DNA of 12,417 nt. Origin: SAR324 cluster bacterium. GTDB lineage: Bacteria > SAR324 > JACQKK01. Each line of letters begins with the position of its first letter. Position 1 is the first letter of the stretch. Below are positions 5,125-12,417 of the stretch, piece after piece. Position numbers and translations under genes: made by a program. Where the stretch lies: assembly GCA_027296185.1 (NCBI GenBank), contig JAPUJL010000025.1, positions 1-12,417 of the forward strand. Direction: 5' to 3'. Below the pieces are notes generated by a model, which had not been told where the DNA came from, searched no databases, and saw nothing but the letters and a program-made list of their open reading frames with translations.

Positions 5125-8100
5125 GTGGAGACCAATCCCGAATTCTCCACGCACGCCGCAAAGCGTTTAACGGGCTGGGGGGAACGATTCCCAGTGTTTG
5201 CCAAACTCACCGAAAGACAGGCACTTGCCATCCGGATGGCGCTAGCCGCCGTATGGATGGTGCTGATCGTTTCTCTGTTCTGGGACCCGATCACGCCGCT
5301 GCTGACGCGCGCGGAAAATTCCTACAGCCCCTTCCGGCTCAACCGGGCCGGAAGCACCGAGGTGTCCGAGCCGTACCGCTGTCCGCTCTACGTTGCCGAC
5401 CCCTCCAGCGGCACCGAATTCGTCGACTGGGGGGCGCATCCGGCCGGCGAGTGCGATGCGCGCTGCCTGCGGGTGCAGGGCCAGTGCGTGATCGAGCGGC
5501 CCTACCGGATGGCGCCGCGCATCTTCTGGGCAATGGTGATCCCGATCATTCCGCTCTTCCTGCTGATCTTCGGCCACGAGGCCTGGCGGCGCATCTGCCC
5601 GTTCTCCTTCTTCTCCCAGATCCCGCGCCTGCTGGGCATTCAATGGAGGGTGTCCTCGATCAATCCGGAGACCGGCTACGTGGAGAAAAAGTCCCTGCTC
5701 GTCGCACCGGGCTCGTTGCTGGAGCGGTATCACTGGTTCATCCAGTTCGGCCTGCTCTTCCTGAGCCTCTCCGCGCGCATCCTGTTCACCAACTCCGATC
5801 CGATCGGCCTGGCCACCTTCTTTCTGGTCTTCATCGGCTCGGCCATGACGGTCGGCTACTTCTTCGGTGGCAAGACCTGGTGCAACTACTTCTGCCCGCT
5901 GGCGCCGGTGCAGAAGGTGTACACCGAACCCCGCGGCCTCCTGGAAAGCCAGGCGCACCAGCCCAAACAGATCATCACCCAGTCCATGTGCCGCCAGCCC
6001 GTGAGCCAAGGGCCGGACGAGAGCACCTGCGTCGGCTGCATCTCCCCCTGCCCGGACGTGGATCTGGAGCGATCCTATTGGGAGCGGCTCGATAAGCCCG
6101 GGCGGCGGTTCGTGTACTACGGCTACCTGGGGCTGGTGATCGGCTTCTACACCTATTACGTCCTGTACGCGGGCAACTGGGACTACTACTTCTCCGGCGC
6201 CTGGACCCACGAGGAGGATCAACTGCTGCGGATCTGGGATCCCGGGTTTTACATCGCCGGGTTCGGCCTGCCCATACCCAAGCTGCTCGCCGCGCCCCTC
6301 ACCATCGGCGTGTTCATCCTGGCCACCTACCTGATCGGGCGCGCGCTCGAATCCGCCTACAATGCCTACAGCCGGCGCAAGGGGCGCACGCTGACCCAGG
6401 AGCAGCTGCTGCACCGCACGTTCAGCGTCGCGACGTTCCTCACCATCAACACCTTCTACATGTTCGGGGGACGACCCAATCTCAATCTGCTCCCGAGCTG
6501 GCTGTTGACCCTGTTCGACATCGCCGTGATCGTGCTCAGCAGCTTCTGGCTCTGGCGTACCCTGGGCCGCACGGCGTTGGAGTACCGGCGGGAGGGGCTG
6601 GCGGAAGGGCTGCGCCGCGGCTTAAGCCGGTTGAATTTCGATTTCGCCAAATTGCTGGAAGGCCGCTCGCTGGAGGACCTCTCCGCCAGCGAAACCTATG
6701 TCCTGGCCAAGACCCTGCCCGGAATCACGCGGGAGCAGCGCTACCGGGTCTACAAGGACGCGTTGCGCGATGCCCTCCGCTCCGGCTACGCGGACGCGAG
6801 CAGCATGGCGACGATTCAGGACCTCCGGCAGAACCTGGAGCTGAGCGAGCAGGAACACGCCCAAGCCATGATGGAGCTGGGGATCGAGGACAGCGGCTTG
6901 CTGGACCCGGAGCGGTTGCGCTCCCAGGAGAGCCAGATCCGGCTGGACAACTTCCGTCACGCCATCGAGTCCCTGCTGAAGCAATGGGTGCAGGAAGGCA
7001 CGCCCATCAAGCTGGCCCTCCAGCAACCCGAGGCCAACGCCCAAATCCAGAACTTGCAGGCCATGTACAACATCTCCGAGCAGGAGCAGGCGGAGGTGTT
7101 GCCCGAACTGTTGGACGAGCGCGGGTCGATCGTTCAGGATGCGGGCCGGTGGGTCGACCAGCTGCGGGAAATGGCTCTGTGGCGCGGCGCGATCAACTCC
7201 GTGGTGCTCGAGCACCAAACCTCCATCGGCCTGCTGAATCACCTCATTTCCCAGCGGCAGAAGATCGTCATCCAGCGGTTGCTCAACGTGCTGCAGTTAC
7301 TGGAAAACACCCCCGAGGGGATCGTGCTGGCGTTCGCGCTCGCGAAGTTGGCCCCGGAGGAGGTCGACGCGTTGCTGAGCAGCGCCGATTCCTTCGAGGG
7401 ATTCGAGTCGGGGTGGAGCGATCTGCTGCATGCGGAGACCTTACAGATTCTCGAAAGCAAGCCGGACGCGAGGCCGCAGGTGGGGACGACGCTGATACCC
7501 AACGAGGATTTCCGGGCACTGCTCCGGAACCCGCCCCCCGCCGAGGATGTGCTCACCACGCTGATCCGGGGGCCCGAGGCGAGGTTCCAGGCGCCGGCGC
7601 TGTACTTGCTCTCCCGGTTCGACCGCGCCCGCTCCGTCGAGGAAAGCGCCTGGCTGATGGAATCCGGCGAGCCGGATTCGATCGCGAGGAATCTCGCCGA
7701 ATGGCTGATCCGCAATCCCCAGGCGAAGACAGCGGAGGAAAGCGCCGGACCGGGCTACCGGGTGCGGCAGGCGACCACGTTCCGCAAGCTGCTGTTGCTC
7801 TACGAGAGCGACTTCTTCAACCACCTTCCGATGGAAGATCTGGCCCGGCTGGCGCTCGATGCCGAAGTGCGCATGTATCCCCAGGGCAGCATCATCTGCC
7901 GGCAGGACGATCCCTCGGACGAGGTGTTGCTGCTCAGCTACGGCGCCGTCGACGTGAATATCCACTCGGAGGGCAAGGACCTGAAAGTCGTCATGAACAA
8001 GCCGGGTGAAACCATCGGCGAAATCGGCGTGATCATGCACACCCCCCGCTCCGCCACGGTCGTCGCCGGCGAAAGCTCCGCCATGGTCTTGGCCATGAAG

Positions 8101-8208
8101 GGTGAACAGTTCGAGGCGTTCGTGGAACAGGATTCGTTCACCGCCATGAGCTTCATGCGCCAGGCCTTCGAACGGTTGCAGCGCATGTCGGACCGCATCT
8201 CGGGATAG
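5125..8208 (+). CDS. Membrane iron-sulfur protein fused to helical repeats and a cyclic-nucleotide-binding domain
   Basis: This is a 1027-residue multidomain protein that I cannot match to a named system. Residues ~35-480 form a membrane domain with about seven hydrophobic segments (near 36-54, 133-149, 204-221, 228-250, 329-350, 388-408, 455-478). It carries NapH/NosR/CcoG-like iron-sulfur motifs: RRICP (Cys158), WCNYFCP (Cys253, Cys257) and CVGCISPCP (Cys302, 305, 309), with Cys289 nearby. A loop after the first segment holds four cysteines (86, 110, 114, 121). Residues ~484-890 are helical, with a repeated unit around 564-585 and 641-662. Residues ~898-1015 form a CRP/PKA-type cyclic-nucleotide domain, with GE at 965-966 and Arg975 in PRSATV, the residues that hold the cyclic phosphate. 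The start is GTG without a clear ribosome site; GTG at 5194 after a G-run is an alternative. The next gene begins 10 bases on. Electron transfer controlled by cAMP or cGMP is inferred. Confidence 0.85.
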   Translation: METNPEFSTHAAKRLTGWGERFPVFAKLTERQALAIRMALAAVWMVLIVSLFWDPITPLLTRAENSYSPFRLNRAGSTEVSEPYRCPLYVADPSSGTEFVDWGAHPAGECDARCLRVQGQCVIERPYRMAPRIFWAMVIPIIPLFLLIFGHEAWRRICPFSFFSQIPRLLGIQWRVSSINPETGYVEKKSLLVAPGSLLERYHWFIQFGLLFLSLSARILFTNSDPIGLATFFLVFIGSAMTVGYFFGGKTWCNYFCPLAPVQKVYTEPRGLLESQAHQPKQIITQSMCRQPVSQGPDESTCVGCISPCPDVDLERSYWERLDKPGRRFVYYGYLGLVIGFYTYYVLYAGNWDYYFSGAWTHEEDQLLRIWDPGFYIAGFGLPIPKLLAAPLTIGVFILATYLIGRALESAYNAYSRRKGRTLTQEQLLHRTFSVATFLTINTFYMFGGRPNLNLLPSWLLTLFDIAVIVLSSFWLWRTLGRTALEYRREGLAEGLRRGLSRLNFDFAKLLEGRSLEDLSASETYVLAKTLPGITREQRYRVYKDALRDALRSGYADASSMATIQDLRQNLELSEQEHAQAMMELGIEDSGLLDPERLRSQESQIRLDNFRHAIESLLKQWVQEGTPIKLALQQPEANAQIQNLQAMYNISEQEQAEVLPELLDERGSIVQDAGRWVDQLREMALWRGAINSVVLEHQTSIGLLNHLISQRQKIVIQRLLNVLQLLENTPEGIVLAFALAKLAPEEVDALLSSADSFEGFESGWSDLLHAETLQILESKPDARPQVGTTLIPNEDFRALLRNPPPAEDVLTTLIRGPEARFQAPALYLLSRFDRARSVEESAWLMESGEPDSIARNLAEWLIRNPQAKTAEESAGPGYRVRQATTFRKLLLLYESDFFNHLPMEDLARLALDAEVRMYPQGSIICRQDDPSDEVLLLSYGAVDVNIHSEGKDLKVVMNKPGETIGEIGVIMHTPRSATVVAGESSAMVLAMKGEQFEAFVEQDSFTAMSFMRQAFERLQRMSDRISG

Positions 8209-8218
8209 AGCGCATTCG

Positions 8219-9946
8219 GTGAAAGACGAAGCCCCGCCGGCCGGCGCTAACGGCCAGGAGGAGCTGGACGCGCTGCTGGCCGGCCTGCCCTTCCGCATCT
8301 TCGTGTGGATCGCCGAGGCGATCTCCGCCATCGAGACGGGCGAGGTGGAGATTTTCCTCAACATGCTCGGCCGGCCCCGCTGGTGCAGGAGCGCCGGGGC
8401 GCGGGAGCTGATGACCCAGGCCGCCGGCGCCTACACGGCCCACTGGAAGGCCTACCAGAGCGGAGAGCTGATCCGGGAGCTCTACCCGGTGCAGGAAGCG
8501 GTGCAGGCCCTGCAGCGGGGCCTGGCGACCGATGAGGCGAAGCTCCTCGTCCGCGACCTGGACTACCTGGCCCAGGCCATCGCCCGCAGTTCCAGCCGGT
8601 TCCTCGGCATCGGCTACATCCGCCGGGAACAGCAGCGGGCGCTCAACCAACTCTCCGTGGCGCTGGACGGGCAGCTCGTGCTCGGGGGGCCGGGTGGCGC
8701 GGAATCCGCCGAGGCGGTGCCGCTGGAAGGGCCGGAGGCGCCTCCCCACGCCAGCTACATGCCGCTGGCCGTGGTCAAGCCGGAGCATCTGAGCCGTTGG
8801 GAGAAGGGCAAGCTGCTCGTGCGGTGCGTGGAGATCGTCGACGTGACCCACGACGCGAGGACCTTCCGGTTCGTCAGCGACCCCCCGACGCTCTTCCAGT
8901 ACAAGCCCGGCCAGTTTCTCACCCTGGAGTTGGAAATCGACGGGAAGCCCACCCACCGCTCCTACACGATTTCCTCCACCCCCTCGCGCCCCCATGCGCT
9001 GGAGATTACGGTCAAGCGGGTGGCGGGTGGCCGGGTCTCCAACTGGCTCCACGACAACCTGCGCGTGGGAGCCACGCTCTCGGTGAAAGGGCCCAGCGGC
9101 CGCTTCAACTGCTTCGATCATCCCGCGCGCAAGATGCTCCTCATCTCCGGCGGCGCCGGCATCACGCCGGTGATGTCCATGGCCCGCTGGGTGCTGGATA
9201 CCGCCGCCGATTGCGACCTGGTGTTTCTCCACGCCGCGCGGACGCCGGAGGACATCATCTTCCGCACCGAGCTGGGGATGATGGAGCAGCGGCACCGCAA
9301 CTTCCGGCTATTCCTCACCGTCTCCCGGCCCCCGGCAGGCGGAGGCTGGGAGGGATTCAGCGGTCGCATCTCGCCGGAGCTGTTCCGGCGGGTTGCCGCG
9401 GACTATCGGGAGCGCTCGGCCTTCGTCTGCGGGCCGACGGGATTCATGGATGCCACCCGGCACATCATGGAGGGGCTGGAATTTCCCATGGAGCACTACT
9501 ACGAGGAGAGCTTCGGCGAGGCCGCCGCGGGAGCCGGCAAGGCGGCCCCCCGGGTGGGCGCGCCGGGGACGGTGCTGGGCCTCCTTCCGCGGCCCGATCC
9601 CGGGAGCCGGATGAAGCGGCTGGTGGGAGACCTGGTGCTGGACGAGGCGGCCGCCGCACCCCGTCCCGCGCCCGCCGCTCCGGAGCAGATCGTGGTGTTC
9701 GCCCAGTCCGGCCTGGAAGGCGCCAGCGACGGCGAGACCACCATTCTCGATCTGGCTGAGGAGCTGGGGGTTCCCATCCCCAGCGCCTGCCGTTCGGGGG
9801 TCTGCGGCACCTGCAAGGTCAAGAAGATGGAAGGGGACGTGGAAGAGGACGAGCAGGCCGACGGGCTGGAGCCGGACGAAATCGAGGCGGGTTACATTCT
9901 CACCTGTGTGTCCCGCCCCAAGGGCCGCGTGGTGCTGGATACGTAG
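8219..9946 (+). CDS. NAD(P)H:ferredoxin reductase with N-terminal helical domain and C-terminal [2Fe-2S] ferredoxin
   Basis: This is a 575-residue soluble flavoprotein that should pass electrons from NAD(P)H through a flavin to a [2Fe-2S] cluster. Residues 1 to ~185 are helical and unrecognised. Residues ~195-425 are a ferredoxin-NADP-reductase fold, with the flavin motif RSYTISS (247-253), nucleotide-binding SGGAGITPV (310-318) and VCGPTGF (403-409). A Pro/Ala-rich linker leads to a plant-type ferredoxin whose cluster ligands are C524-X4-C529-X2-C532-X30-C563. The order reductase then ferredoxin resembles Hcr and the phthalate-dioxygenase-reductase group, but those lack the ~185-residue front part. 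It starts at GTG 10 bases after the iron-sulfur/cyclic-nucleotide gene with no good ribosome site, so it is probably translationally coupled and feeds electrons to that protein. No oxygenase or hybrid-cluster gene is next to it. The partner is inferred. Confidence 0.9.
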   Translation: MKDEAPPAGANGQEELDALLAGLPFRIFVWIAEAISAIETGEVEIFLNMLGRPRWCRSAGARELMTQAAGAYTAHWKAYQSGELIRELYPVQEAVQALQRGLATDEAKLLVRDLDYLAQAIARSSSRFLGIGYIRREQQRALNQLSVALDGQLVLGGPGGAESAEAVPLEGPEAPPHASYMPLAVVKPEHLSRWEKGKLLVRCVEIVDVTHDARTFRFVSDPPTLFQYKPGQFLTLELEIDGKPTHRSYTISSTPSRPHALEITVKRVAGGRVSNWLHDNLRVGATLSVKGPSGRFNCFDHPARKMLLISGGAGITPVMSMARWVLDTAADCDLVFLHAARTPEDIIFRTELGMMEQRHRNFRLFLTVSRPPAGGGWEGFSGRISPELFRRVAADYRERSAFVCGPTGFMDATRHIMEGLEFPMEHYYEESFGEAAAGAGKAAPRVGAPGTVLGLLPRPDPGSRMKRLVGDLVLDEAAAAPRPAPAAPEQIVVFAQSGLEGASDGETTILDLAEELGVPIPSACRSGVCGTCKVKKMEGDVEEDEQADGLEPDEIEAGYILTCVSRPKGRVVLDT

Positions 9947-11322: not shown

Positions 11323-12147
11323 ATGAAGTCGAGATGGCGTAAGCCTTTGGGGACGTGTGTTTCCCTCATAACCGTTGCGGTGCTGGCGATGGCCTTGGCC
11401 TCCTGCGAGGAGGACACTTCGGTCAACAAGCCGAATTCCGACGAGCAGGCCGGCATCGACGCCGCGGGCGCCGTCGGATCGGCCCTGGAAAACGCGTTAG
11501 CCGCCGAGGATCAGAATCCCGACACCCTTCAAGCGGCACCCGGCGTCTCGCCAAGCCAATTGGCCCGCCTCAGCCGGGGCCTCCCGGGCCTCGGGCTGCG
11601 GGGCGCCATCCTCGGCGCTCTCAATGAGGTCCAGCAAACCGGCAGCGCCAGCGTCACCTGGGACGCGAGTTATGGCTGTACCGGAGGGGGCACGGTCGAA
11701 GTTTCTGGATCCGCGACCTGGTCGGCGACGTGGGATTCGGTCGAGCCGGTGTTTTACGACGAGACGTTTATGCTGGACAACGTCCTGTTGACCCTCACCG
11801 ACTGCTCCGAAGACGGGTATACCCTCAACGGCACGGCCACCTTTACGGCGACCAACTCGTTCAATTTCACCCAGACCGCGGTGGGCTCCTCGCTGTTCGA
11901 TATCGGCCTCGAAATCGACGAGAGTGCCGCCGCGGACATCACGGCCCTGCAGCAAGCCACGGGTAGCACTTTCACGCTGATTATGTCCTGGGCGCAGTTT
12001 GGCACCCTGACGGGGCAAATCAACGTGGTGACCGAGGAAGCGACGATCACCAGCGTCGACTTTACCGCCACGATCACGGTCAACGGCACCACCTGCACGG
12101 CGCGTTGGACGAATCCGAACAAGGAACCCACGTACTCCTGCCAGTAG
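11323..12147 (+). CDS. Hypothetical lipoprotein, unknown function
   Basis: I do not recognise this 274-residue protein. It begins with a lipoprotein signal peptide: basic MKSRWRKP, a hydrophobic core at ~12-26 and lipobox LASC with Cys28. The residue after the cysteine is Glu, not Asp, so in an enteric-type Lol system it would go to the outer membrane. The region after the cysteine is acidic and probably flexible (~29-75). The rest is rich in Ser, Thr, Gly and aromatic residues with alternating patterns (VEVSGSATWSATW, LNGTATFTATNSF) that suggest beta-sheet. Four cysteines (119, 161, 258, 273) could form two disulfides. The ATG start has GGGAG seven bases upstream. It stands alone, divergent from the methionine synthase gene and followed by hairpins, so it is probably monocistronic. 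The exported lipoprotein call is firm; the function is unknown. Confidence 0.85.
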   Translation: MKSRWRKPLGTCVSLITVAVLAMALASCEEDTSVNKPNSDEQAGIDAAGAVGSALENALAAEDQNPDTLQAAPGVSPSQLARLSRGLPGLGLRGAILGALNEVQQTGSASVTWDASYGCTGGGTVEVSGSATWSATWDSVEPVFYDETFMLDNVLLTLTDCSEDGYTLNGTATFTATNSFNFTQTAVGSSLFDIGLEIDESAAADITALQQATGSTFTLIMSWAQFGTLTGQINVVTEEATITSVDFTATITVNGTTCTARWTNPNKEPTYSCQ

Positions 12148-12171
12148 GGAGCCCCTTCCCTTGAATTTCCT

Positions 12172-12205
12172 GGGCGGCCGCCGATCGTTGCAGCGGCGGC
12201 CACCC
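12172..12205 (+). terminator. Terminator-like hairpin after the lipoprotein gene
   Basis: GGGCGGCCGCCG, a 10-base loop, then CGGCGGCCACCC form an 11-bp stem with one C/A mismatch, starting 25 bases after the lipoprotein stop. The downstream sequence is CT-rich but lacks a T-run, so an intrinsic terminator is not certain. It could instead protect the mRNA 3' end. Confidence 0.5.
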
Positions 12206-12216
12206 GCCTCTTCCCA

Positions 12217-12247
12217 ATTCCGCGGAATGCATTGGGGCGGCGGCCCC
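12217..12247. other. Palindrome and GC hairpin between convergent genes
   Basis: A perfect 12-bp palindrome, ATTCCGCGGAAT, lies at 12217-12228, framed by CCA and TGG. It is followed by GGGGC-GGCG-GCCCC, a 5-bp stem with a 4-base loop, at 12234-12247. Both are in the gap between the lipoprotein gene and the minus-strand gene at the right edge. No function is assigned. Confidence 0.4.
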
Positions 12248-12273
12248 TTGCGAGGTTGTTGGACGGCCTGACG

Positions 12274-12309
12274 GGGAGCTTTATAAGCCCGATAGGCTTT
12301 TGAACTCCC
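12274..12309 (+). terminator. Second terminator-like hairpin, overlapping the stop of the right-edge gene
   Basis: An inner stem AAGCC-CGATA-GGCTT (12285-12299) is followed by TT, and an outer GGGAG/CTCCC pair frames it. In the plus direction this resembles a small intrinsic terminator. On the minus strand it includes the last codons and stop of the partial gene, so it may simply be coding sequence. Confidence 0.35.
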
Positions 12310-12417
12310 GATCCCCCCGGAGCCGGAAGAGCCGCTGAAGTGGGTCGGCCGCGAGCTTTGCGCGAAGGTTGATTTTGTTCCAGATGGACGCGGCGAATCC
12401 GGAGCCGTCCTCAGCCG
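12281..12417 (-). CDS. C-terminal end of an unrecognised protein (partial)
   Basis: An open minus-strand frame enters from the right edge and ends at TAA (12283-12281), giving 44 residues. The sequence looks like real protein: SIWNKINLRAKLAADPLQR, then LFRLRGDREFKSL, basic and balanced in composition. The opposite strand is interrupted by TGA codons in this stretch. I do not recognise the family from this tail. It would converge on the lipoprotein gene. Confidence 0.5.
   Translation of the reverse strand, partial: AEDGSGFAASIWNKINLRAKLAADPLQRLFRLRGDREFKSLSGL

What the first reader, a model, noticed from the sequence alone, without database searches (positions are those of the whole stretch)
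5125..9946. Two-gene electron-transfer module apparently gated by a cyclic nucleotide
Seen: a membrane NapH/NosR-like iron-sulfur domain and a CRP/PKA-type cyclic-nucleotide domain are in one 1027-residue chain. Ten bases later a reductase with flavin, NAD(P)H and [2Fe-2S] sites follows on the same strand. Known: NapH/NosR/CcoG-type proteins move electrons at the membrane, and ferredoxin-reductases feed [2Fe-2S] carriers. Inference: NAD(P)H electrons flow through the second protein into the membrane clusters of the first, switched by cAMP or cGMP. I know of no described redox protein in which a cyclic-nucleotide domain sits on the membrane iron-sulfur subunit itself. No terminal reductase, oxygenase or cytochrome gene lies next to it.
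Basis: partly seen in the sequence, partly recalled or inferred. Interest (0 to 1): 0.82.

Follow-up and report, generated by a model that had tools for sequence, protein, structure and literature searches.

The report
Messenger-tailed membrane iron-sulfur redox pair
Two neighbouring genes encode a reductase and a membrane iron-sulfur protein that very probably pass electrons to each other, and the membrane protein carries a built-in receptor domain for a small signalling molecule, which suggests a redox pathway that the cell can switch by a second messenger.

Summary
ORF 5125-8208 (true start probably GTG 5194, 1004 aa; "P1") joins a multi-helix membrane Fe-S domain to a CRP/PKA-type cyclic-nucleotide domain with an intact phosphate-binding cassette. 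ORF 8219-9946 ("P2") is an FAD/NAD(P)H/[2Fe-2S] reductase. P1 belongs to a large family, distantly related to NapH/CcoG, for which I found no described function. Evidence for partnership: same-strand adjacency in SAR324, Pseudomonadota and cyanobacteria (26 of 79 loci); all 7 P2-positive genomes in a 194-genome cyanobacterial sample also have P1; congruent trees; one natural fusion of P1's membrane domain to a P2-like [2Fe-2S] domain. The cyclic-nucleotide tail is a plug-in: in one cyanobacterial order 40 of 71 P1 genes lack it, a few carry EF-hands instead, others add FHA domains. Most cyanobacterial tails lost the phosphate-binding arginine, so gating is credible for the window protein (its genome has 13 class III cyclase matches) but is not a family rule. 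One cyanobacterial branch has no P2 next door and often lies beside nitrate-type ABC transporter genes. The acceptor is unknown; a quinone is my guess. Structure prediction never finished.

The parts
5194..8208 (+). P1: membrane Fe-S protein with C-terminal cyclic-nucleotide domain (ORF opens at GTG 5125; probable start GTG 5194)
   Evidence: family starts align at residue 24
5227..6558 (+). P1 membrane domain, about eight helices in my reading; N and C ends cytoplasmic
   Evidence: alignment-averaged hydropathy: six clear peaks (centred near 44, 140, 213, 237, 396, 462-471), one marginal (440); an aromatic segment 331-350 was placed by eye; loop 151-202 strongly positive (mean 11.0 K+R against 3.3 D+E)
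5575..5601 (+). H151-E-x-W-R-R-x-C158-P: half of a CX3CP motif, first Cys replaced by Trp154
   Evidence: W154, R155, C158 in 85 of 85 rows and 93 of 93 loci
5881..5898 (+). C253-x3-C257-P Fe-S motif (inside the Fer4_5 match)
5989..6051 (+). C289-x12-C302-x2-C305-x3-C309, probable [4Fe-4S] site on the cytoplasmic face
   Evidence: 85 of 85; in 93 loci only C289 of L124 is missing
6583..7794 (+). P1 helical linker; its first part is kept in many P1 forms without a nucleotide domain
7870..8133 (+). cyclic-nucleotide-binding domain PF00027
8005..8058 (+). phosphate-binding cassette with E966 and R975, PKA-like spacing (recalled)
8219..9946 (+). P2: NAD(P)H/FAD/[2Fe-2S] reductase
8219..8788 (+). 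P2 N-terminal domain, possibly TerB-like; FHA stands in its place in cyanobacterial P2
   Evidence: TerB PF05099 below cut-off in one relative (19.2 against 24.4 bits); no Pfam match in the window's own copy
8828..9109 (+). FAD-binding domain with RSYT (RSY in 39 of 39 rows)
9140..9460 (+). NAD(P)H-binding domain (GxG, CGP)
9722..9922 (+). plant-type [2Fe-2S] domain, C524-x4-C529-x2-C532-x30-C563

Best explanation
P1 and P2 form a two-protein membrane electron-transfer module. P2 takes a hydride from NAD(P)H onto FAD and passes single electrons through its C-terminal [2Fe-2S] domain (inferred from the domain families). That domain docks on the cytoplasmic face of P1 and reduces P1's Fe-S clusters (inferred from adjacency, co-inheritance and a natural fusion of P1's membrane domain to a P2-like [2Fe-2S] domain). 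P1 hands the electrons to an acceptor in or at the membrane, most likely a quinone (guess). P1's cytoplasmic tail is an interchangeable regulatory module: in the window a cyclic-nucleotide domain with an intact binding cassette; elsewhere FHA plus a nucleotide domain, EF-hands, or nothing recognisable. In the window organism cAMP or cGMP binding most likely changes docking of P2 or access to the clusters (inferred). How likely: redox partnership 0.85; ligand control in the window protein 0.5; quinone as acceptor 0.3.
For: Same-strand neighbours within 1.5 kb in 26 of 79 loci, 25 with P2 downstream, gaps -4 to 613 (loci are the best 80 of 400, one without a called P1 ORF). In a 398-genome phylum sample 2 genomes have P1, one being the sample's chosen centre; both have P2 adjacent. 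In 194 cyanobacterial genomes P1 is in 25 and P2 in 7 (both at E up to 1e-60), and all 7 have P1 (hypergeometric 2.6e-7; 2.0e-6 without the chosen centre; not corrected for kinship); 5 of the 7 are adjacent. Distances of 27 pairs correlate at 0.956 (largest of 2000 permutations 0.353), and well-supported clades do not conflict. Fusion: L129, 622 aa, P1 membrane domain plus Fer2 (PF00111 47.9 bits, PF12801 22.7, both over cut-off). Seven conserved cysteines on the side I read as cytoplasmic. Cassette Glu and Arg present in the window. Genome has 13 class III cyclase and 10 nucleotide-domain matches. In L125 a P1 with intact cassette is followed on the same strand by a Ser/Thr kinase and a class III cyclase. 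EF-hand pair instead of the nucleotide domain in L152 (47.4 bits).
Against: No P2 within 1.5 kb in 53 of 79 loci (7 of these hold under 1.5 kb downstream) and none at E up to 1e-60 in 18 of 25 P1-positive cyanobacterial genomes. The cassette Arg is lost in 67 of 74 cyanobacterial loci and in 2 of 6 other P2-paired loci, L030 and L041; in the Pseudomonadota pair L148 Pfam sees FHA but no nucleotide domain. Only one fusion was seen, on a long branch, and that genome has no P2 at E up to 1e-60, so its electron donor is unknown. No acceptor gene is linked. No structure was obtained. Co-inheritance partly reflects kinship of the organisms.
Confidence: 0.6

Rival explanations
1. Electron-transfer pair without cyclic-nucleotide gating: the nucleotide fold is a docking or structural domain, or binds another ligand, as seems likely in relatives that lost the arginine.
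For: 67 of 74 cyanobacterial nucleotide domains lack the Arg; 40 of 71 P1 genes in one order have no such domain, 11 of them still beside P2.
Against: The window and L021, L079, L095 keep both Glu and Arg, as does L125 near a cyclase; 56 of 85 rows of A3, which I picked for diversity, keep both.
Confidence: 0.3
2. Redox signalling device rather than a bulk electron carrier: P2 charges P1, and P1's redox state or conformation controls a partner such as a transporter; in cyanobacteria the nitrate-type ABC importer.
For: nrt-like genes near P1 in 12 of 79 loci (7 directly upstream on the same strand, 4 upstream on the opposite strand, 1 downstream) and in 11 of 71 (all upstream, same strand); nucleotide, FHA and EF-hand tails look like signalling; no terminal reductase nearby.
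Against: nrt-linked P1 never had P2 within 1.5 kb (0 of 79, 0 of 71); no nrt genes were recognised in the window; a full flavin/[2Fe-2S] reductase is more than a sensor needs. Only L138's transporter was checked by NCBIfam, the others by BLAST similarity to it; TIGR01184 may also match bicarbonate or cyanate paralogues (recalled).
Confidence: 0.2
3. Electrons run the other way: P1 oxidises quinol or another membrane donor and P2 reduces NAD(P)+ or a soluble acceptor.
For: NapH is named 'quinol dehydrogenase ferredoxin subunit' by NCBIfam.
Against: The closest P2 models are reductases that take electrons from NAD(P)H (recalled): GbcB 386 bits, PRK10684, PaaE.
Confidence: 0.1
4. P2 is an ordinary oxygenase reductase (GbcB-like) and its place beside P1 is incidental.
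For: Best NCBIfam match is GbcB, below its cut-off (386.4 of 500 bits).
Against: Conserved adjacency, co-occurrence and the fusion; no oxygenase gene among the ORFs scanned.
Confidence: 0.04

Closest known systems
NapH/MauN (TIGR02163) and CcoG/RdxA/FixG (TIGR02745) membrane ferredoxin-type proteins
   Same: Weak profile matches over the Cys-bearing membrane core (NapH 10.3 to 24.8 bits, CcoG 10.9 to 17.6 bits); shared Fer4_5-type motif.
   Different: Far below the cut-offs of 213 and 317 bits; one full and one half CX3CP motif, a single C-x12-C-x2-C-x3-C site, and a long cytoplasmic tail.
FNR-type reductases with C-terminal [2Fe-2S]: GbcB, PRK10684 (Hcr, recalled name), PaaE
   Same: Domain order FAD - NAD(P) - Fer2 and key residues.
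   Different: Extra N-terminal domain (unassigned, or FHA), a linker before Fer2, and a membrane Fe-S protein as conserved neighbour; below the cut-off of all 25 NCBIfam models listed.
NqrF of the Na+-translocating NADH:quinone reductase
   Same: May work alike: NADH to FAD to [2Fe-2S] to a membrane Fe-S partner and quinone (mechanism recalled; sequence similarity).
   Different: NqrF has its [2Fe-2S] domain before the FNR module and is membrane-anchored (recalled); no Nqr subunit was recognised here.
PKA/PKG regulatory domains, CRP, MlotiK1-type channels
   Same: Cyclic-nucleotide domain with matching cassette.
   Different: Attached to an Fe-S membrane protein instead of a kinase, DNA-binding domain or channel.
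Synechocystis slr0593, 'cAMP binding membrane protein'
   Same: The annotation would fit a P1 protein (table row in PMC3516471, passages seen); two P1 copies occur in Synechocystis salina.
   Different: That slr0593 itself is a P1 homologue is my recollection and was not tested; no function found in print.

Membership tests
NapH/MauN, CcoG, NosR | Score over the curated family cut-off | tested here: not met
   9 membrane domains: at most 24.8 bits against 213.05 (NapH), 17.6 against 316.7 (CcoG), 10.5 against 1000 (NosR)
NapH/MauN, CcoG, NosR | Fer4_5-type membrane Fe-S core (PF12801) | tested here: inconclusive
   window 19.1 bits, below 22; relatives on both sides of the cut-off, up to 28.2
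NapH/NosR | Two CX3CP motifs plus two four-Cys ferredoxin motifs (definition recalled) | tested here: not met
   one CX3CP, one half motif with W154 in place of Cys in 85 of 85 and 93 of 93, one four-Cys motif
Cyclic-nucleotide-binding domain | PF00027 over cut-off | tested here: met
   53.3 bits against 27.5
Cyclic-nucleotide-binding domain | Cassette Glu and Arg | tested here: met
   window E966, R975; not general: Arg in 7 of 74 cyanobacterial and 5 of 8 other loci
Cyclic-nucleotide-binding domain | Binds cAMP or cGMP | not testable with these tools
   needs purified protein
FNR-Fer2 reductase (GbcB/Hcr/PaaE type) | FAD, NAD(P) and plant-type [2Fe-2S] sites | tested here: met
   (39 of 39 rows keep RSY, both glycines of GxG and four Cys)
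GbcB | Over NCBIfam cut-off and beside an oxygenase gene | tested here: not met
   386.4 against 500 bits; no oxygenase among the window ORFs scanned
TerB-like N-terminal domain of P2 | PF05099 over cut-off | tested here: not met
   only L148, 19.2 against 24.4 bits; no TerB match in 6 other N-termini

The most novel reading that the evidence does not exclude
A family of ligand-gated electron-transfer proteins: a membrane Fe-S conduit, fed by NAD(P)H through a flavin/[2Fe-2S] partner, whose cytoplasmic tail is an exchangeable second-messenger receptor (cAMP or cGMP, Ca2+ through EF-hands, phospho-threonine through FHA), so that signalling switches membrane redox chemistry directly instead of through transcription.
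Probability: 0.35. Interest if true: 0.85.

Novelty: new variant of a known kind. Interest (0 to 1): 0.68.

Why it matters
Second messengers are known to open channels, activate kinases and bind transcription factors; direct allosteric control of a membrane electron-transfer protein would be a new kind of output. The family is large (945 and 2158 homologues in two searches, each limited to 8000 scored candidates), occurs in cyanobacteria, Pseudomonadota and SAR324, and offers natural variants with different tails on one core, so the question can be tested by comparison. It also gives a candidate function to proteins now labelled only 'cyclic nucleotide-binding domain-containing protein', 'FHA domain-containing protein' or 'hypothetical protein'.

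Tried and rejected
Incidental adjacency: rejected by conservation, co-occurrence and the fusion. Membership in NapH, CcoG or NosR: rejected on scores. Cyclic-nucleotide control as a rule for the whole family: rejected, Arg lost and tail often absent. A cyclase as regular neighbour of P1: seen within 3 kb only in L125; four other hits to one cyclase query lay 3.7 to 7.5 kb away, three of them on the other strand. H151 as a necessary cluster ligand: Y, F or V in four divergent relatives. A nitrite reductase gene beside P1: none found by BLAST with one NirA-like query over the ORFs of the loci. Thr-rich tail motif T-x-[LIV]-[RK] as FHA docking site in P2-adjacent P1 without a nucleotide domain: 14 in 11 tails against 2.2 in shuffles, but the motif was chosen after seeing the data and is also raised (12 in 25 against 3.5) without P2.

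No fold search could be made, so topology, cluster geometry and the P1 fold rest on sequence alone.

The Mantel set also leaves out L048 (P2 cut by the contig end). The tree leaves out two ORFs under 440 aa. Nine of the 40 P1 ORFs without a nucleotide domain are shorter than 500 aa, matches in G654 and G673 hold a stop codon, and L199 is short beside close relatives with the domain, so some of the 40 may be broken genes. My FHA profile is narrow and missed FHA domains that Pfam finds in L030, L033 and L079, so FHA counts are minima. The samples share genomes and are not independent.
Full report
WHAT IS THERE. The window is one contig of a 2.7 Mb, 73.6% complete genome. On the plus strand ORF 5125-8208 and ORF 8219-9946 follow one another with 10 bases between them. 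The first, P1, has a membrane domain with a Fer4_5-type Fe-S motif (sub-threshold in the window itself) and ends in a cyclic-nucleotide-binding domain (53.3 bits). The family start and a jump in GC3 put the true start at GTG 5194. The second, P2, has FAD, NAD(P)H and plant-type [2Fe-2S] domains, in that order, after an N-terminal domain of about 190 residues that Pfam does not recognise in the window's own copy. The recognised neighbours, all on the minus strand, are two ABC permeases, two solute-binding proteins and a metE-like gene.

THE FAMILY. P1 has 945 homologues in one protein search and 2158 when a cyanobacterial member was the query; each search scored 8000 candidates and listed 120, mostly 930-1160 aa, the shortest listed 830. 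The source names seen are generic: cyclic nucleotide-binding domain-containing protein, FHA domain-containing protein, hypothetical protein. Against the PDB the profile finds PKA, PKG, CRP and channel nucleotide domains; the 60 of 228 hits shown all have their best stretch in that part. Against NCBIfam the membrane domain gives weak NapH and CcoG matches, up to 24.8 bits. P1 is thus a distant relative of the NapH/CcoG superfamily and not a member of those families.

ANATOMY OF P1. Alignment-averaged hydropathy gives six clear helices, one marginal one near residue 440, and I place an aromatic eighth at 331-350 by eye. The loop 151-202 is strongly positive (11.0 K+R against 3.3 D+E), so I put it inside; by helix count 248-330 is then inside too, although the stretch 248-385 as computed has balanced charge. 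Seven cysteines, C158, C253, C257, C289, C302, C305 and C309, are kept in 85 of 85 homologues; in 93 loci the only exception is C289 in L124. All lie in those two loops. C289/C302/C305/C309 look like one [4Fe-4S] site; C158/C253/C257 would leave a second cluster one ligand short (inference). H151 was a candidate for the eighth ligand but is replaced in four divergent relatives.

P1 AND P2 BELONG TOGETHER. The genome collection gave 400 loci, of which the best 80 were kept, mostly cyanobacterial. In 79 of them a P1 ORF was called; P2 lies within 1.5 kb in 26, always on the same strand, 25 times downstream, with gaps of -4 to 613 bases. Pairs come from SAR324 (L021; the window is in the same family as that genome), Pseudomonadota (L030, L079, L095; L041 is labelled Proteobacteria and has P2 upstream) and several cyanobacterial lineages. 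In an evenly drawn sample of 398 genomes from L030's phylum 2 have P1, one of them the chosen centre, and both have P2 adjacent. In 194 cyanobacterial genomes P1 is in 25, P2 in 7, and all seven P2 genomes have P1; leaving out the chosen centre it is 6 of 6 with 24 of 193, p = 2.0e-6, not corrected for kinship. In five of the seven the genes are adjacent. Twenty-seven pairs have strongly correlated distances (0.956), and the well-supported clades of the two trees do not conflict. In one genome, G546, the P1 membrane domain is fused to a [2Fe-2S] domain 41% identical to P2's, with no nucleotide domain; that genome has no P2 at E up to 1e-60. The next four matches to the fusion are P1 ORFs of 592-617 aa without a nucleotide domain; three of the four have P2 next door. 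Outside cyanobacteria the module is rare: 2 of 52 genomes in the window's own phylum, the window's own included, 1 of 150 in the order of L095 (the centre itself), 5 of 188 in the phylum of L041, the centre included. Of the other four of those five, L124 and L125 have a nucleotide domain but no P2 among the ORFs fetched, and L121 and L122 are membrane domain only.

THE TAIL IS A PLUG-IN. In one cyanobacterial order 59 of 148 genomes match; I fetched and classified all 71 matches listed. Thirty-one have a nucleotide domain (at least 7 of them with FHA), one is the Fer2 fusion, and 39 have neither. Three of the 39 match an EF-hand pattern; two more, L170 and L203, show EF-hand loops by eye. For L152 (the same place as L172) Pfam confirms an EF-hand pair at 47.4 bits against 30. 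On a quick tree of 75 rows the tail type changes at least 13 times. P2 adjoins 11 of the 40 P1 genes without a nucleotide domain and 5 of the 31 with one, all five of those with FHA. Some short ORFs may be broken genes (see Tried and rejected). So the core is the membrane domain plus P2, and regulation is variable.

IS IT CYCLIC-NUCLEOTIDE GATED? In the window the cassette reads GETIGEIGVIMHTPRSAT, with the Glu and Arg that bind the ribose and phosphate in CRP and PKA (roles and PKA-like spacing recalled). The genome has 13 class III cyclase and 10 nucleotide-domain matches. In L125 a P1 with an intact cassette is followed on the same strand by a small ORF, a Ser/Thr kinase and a class III cyclase with a sub-threshold HAMP match. 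Against a general rule, Arg is kept in only 7 of 74 cyanobacterial loci and in 5 of 8 others, and L148, a Pseudomonadota pair, shows FHA but no recognised nucleotide domain. Gating is therefore a fair hypothesis for the window and unlikely for most cyanobacterial members.

A SIDE BRANCH. A strongly supported cyanobacterial clade of 51 rows has no row with P2 next door (one row, P0114, has no known context) and holds all 14 loci of that tree with neighbouring nitrate-type ABC transporter genes. In the later, quicker tree one P2-adjacent P1, L188, falls at the edge of the corresponding group on a long branch, so the split is not absolute. P1 is the gene after nrtD in L138 and L139. Twelve of 79 and 11 of 71 loci have this neighbourhood, never together with P2. 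Of 20 loci without adjacent P2 that I submitted, 19 genomes were held, and 5 have a P2 elsewhere (matches of 322 bits or more); one of the five, from L029, whose P1 ends 47 bases before the end of the DNA held, may be adjacent across a contig break. Free ferredoxin may replace P2 in the other cyanobacteria (guess).

LITERATURE. Nine searches, among them the nucleotide domain combined with NosR, CcoG, NapH, FHA, Fe-S or nrtABCD, returned nothing on this family (listings only, plus passages of PMC10710835, which mention the two terms separately). Synechocystis slr0593 appears as 'cAMP binding membrane protein' in an expression table (PMC3516471, passages); its identity with P1 is recalled and untested. 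The library holds open-licence papers only, so a subscription paper could have been missed.

VERDICT. The pair is real and is very probably a conserved NAD(P)H-driven membrane redox module. Its second-messenger tail is real in the window and modular in the family. Direct gating is the interesting, unproven step; the acceptor is unknown.

Noticed in passing
L152 6250-8433 (same place as L172); also L170 and L203: P1 proteins whose tail holds EF-hands in place of the nucleotide domain (PF13499 47.4 bits in L152; L170 and L203 by eye).
   Followed up: partly
L138 1872-9980, L139 554-9547, and 11 of 71 survey loci: P1 directly after nitrate-type ABC transporter genes, never with P2 next door.
   Followed up: partly
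L021 7197-9614 and 9891-11552: Downstream of the SAR324 pair: a metallo-beta-lactamase protein with two cyclic-nucleotide domains, then a nucleoside-phosphorylase-type protein.
   Followed up: partly
L125 3566-10371: P1 with intact cassette, small ORF, Ser/Thr kinase and class III cyclase on one strand.
   Followed up: partly
L164, L167, L155, L156 and similar P1 C-termini: Thr-rich tails with T-x-[LIV]-[RK] motifs in P1 forms that lack the nucleotide domain; possible phospho-threonine sites for P2's FHA domain (post hoc).
   Followed up: partly
L107 22-1788, L109 52-1794: Nitrite/sulfite-reductase-like proteins (NirA-type by eye) with a fused C-terminal [2Fe-2S] domain close to P2's; L109 is followed by an NrtA-like gene.
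   Followed up: no
L080 8838-9973, also L093, L099, L100, L076: ParA-type ATPase (PF10609) and a small protein without Pfam match directly upstream of P1 in Crocosphaera and Cyanothece genomes.
   Followed up: no
L123 7433-10186: Short P1 (425 aa, membrane domain only) next to a Na+/H+ exchanger gene in the genome of L040 (a Nostoc).
   Followed up: no
L079 6390-8339: GGDEF (diguanylate cyclase) protein 11 bases downstream of P2.
   Followed up: no
G000:C258:2203-3105: A 1065-aa open frame in the window's genome with two cyclic-nucleotide domains.
   Followed up: no
window 11497-12417: 306-aa minus-strand open frame running off the contig with no Pfam or NCBIfam match.
   Followed up: no
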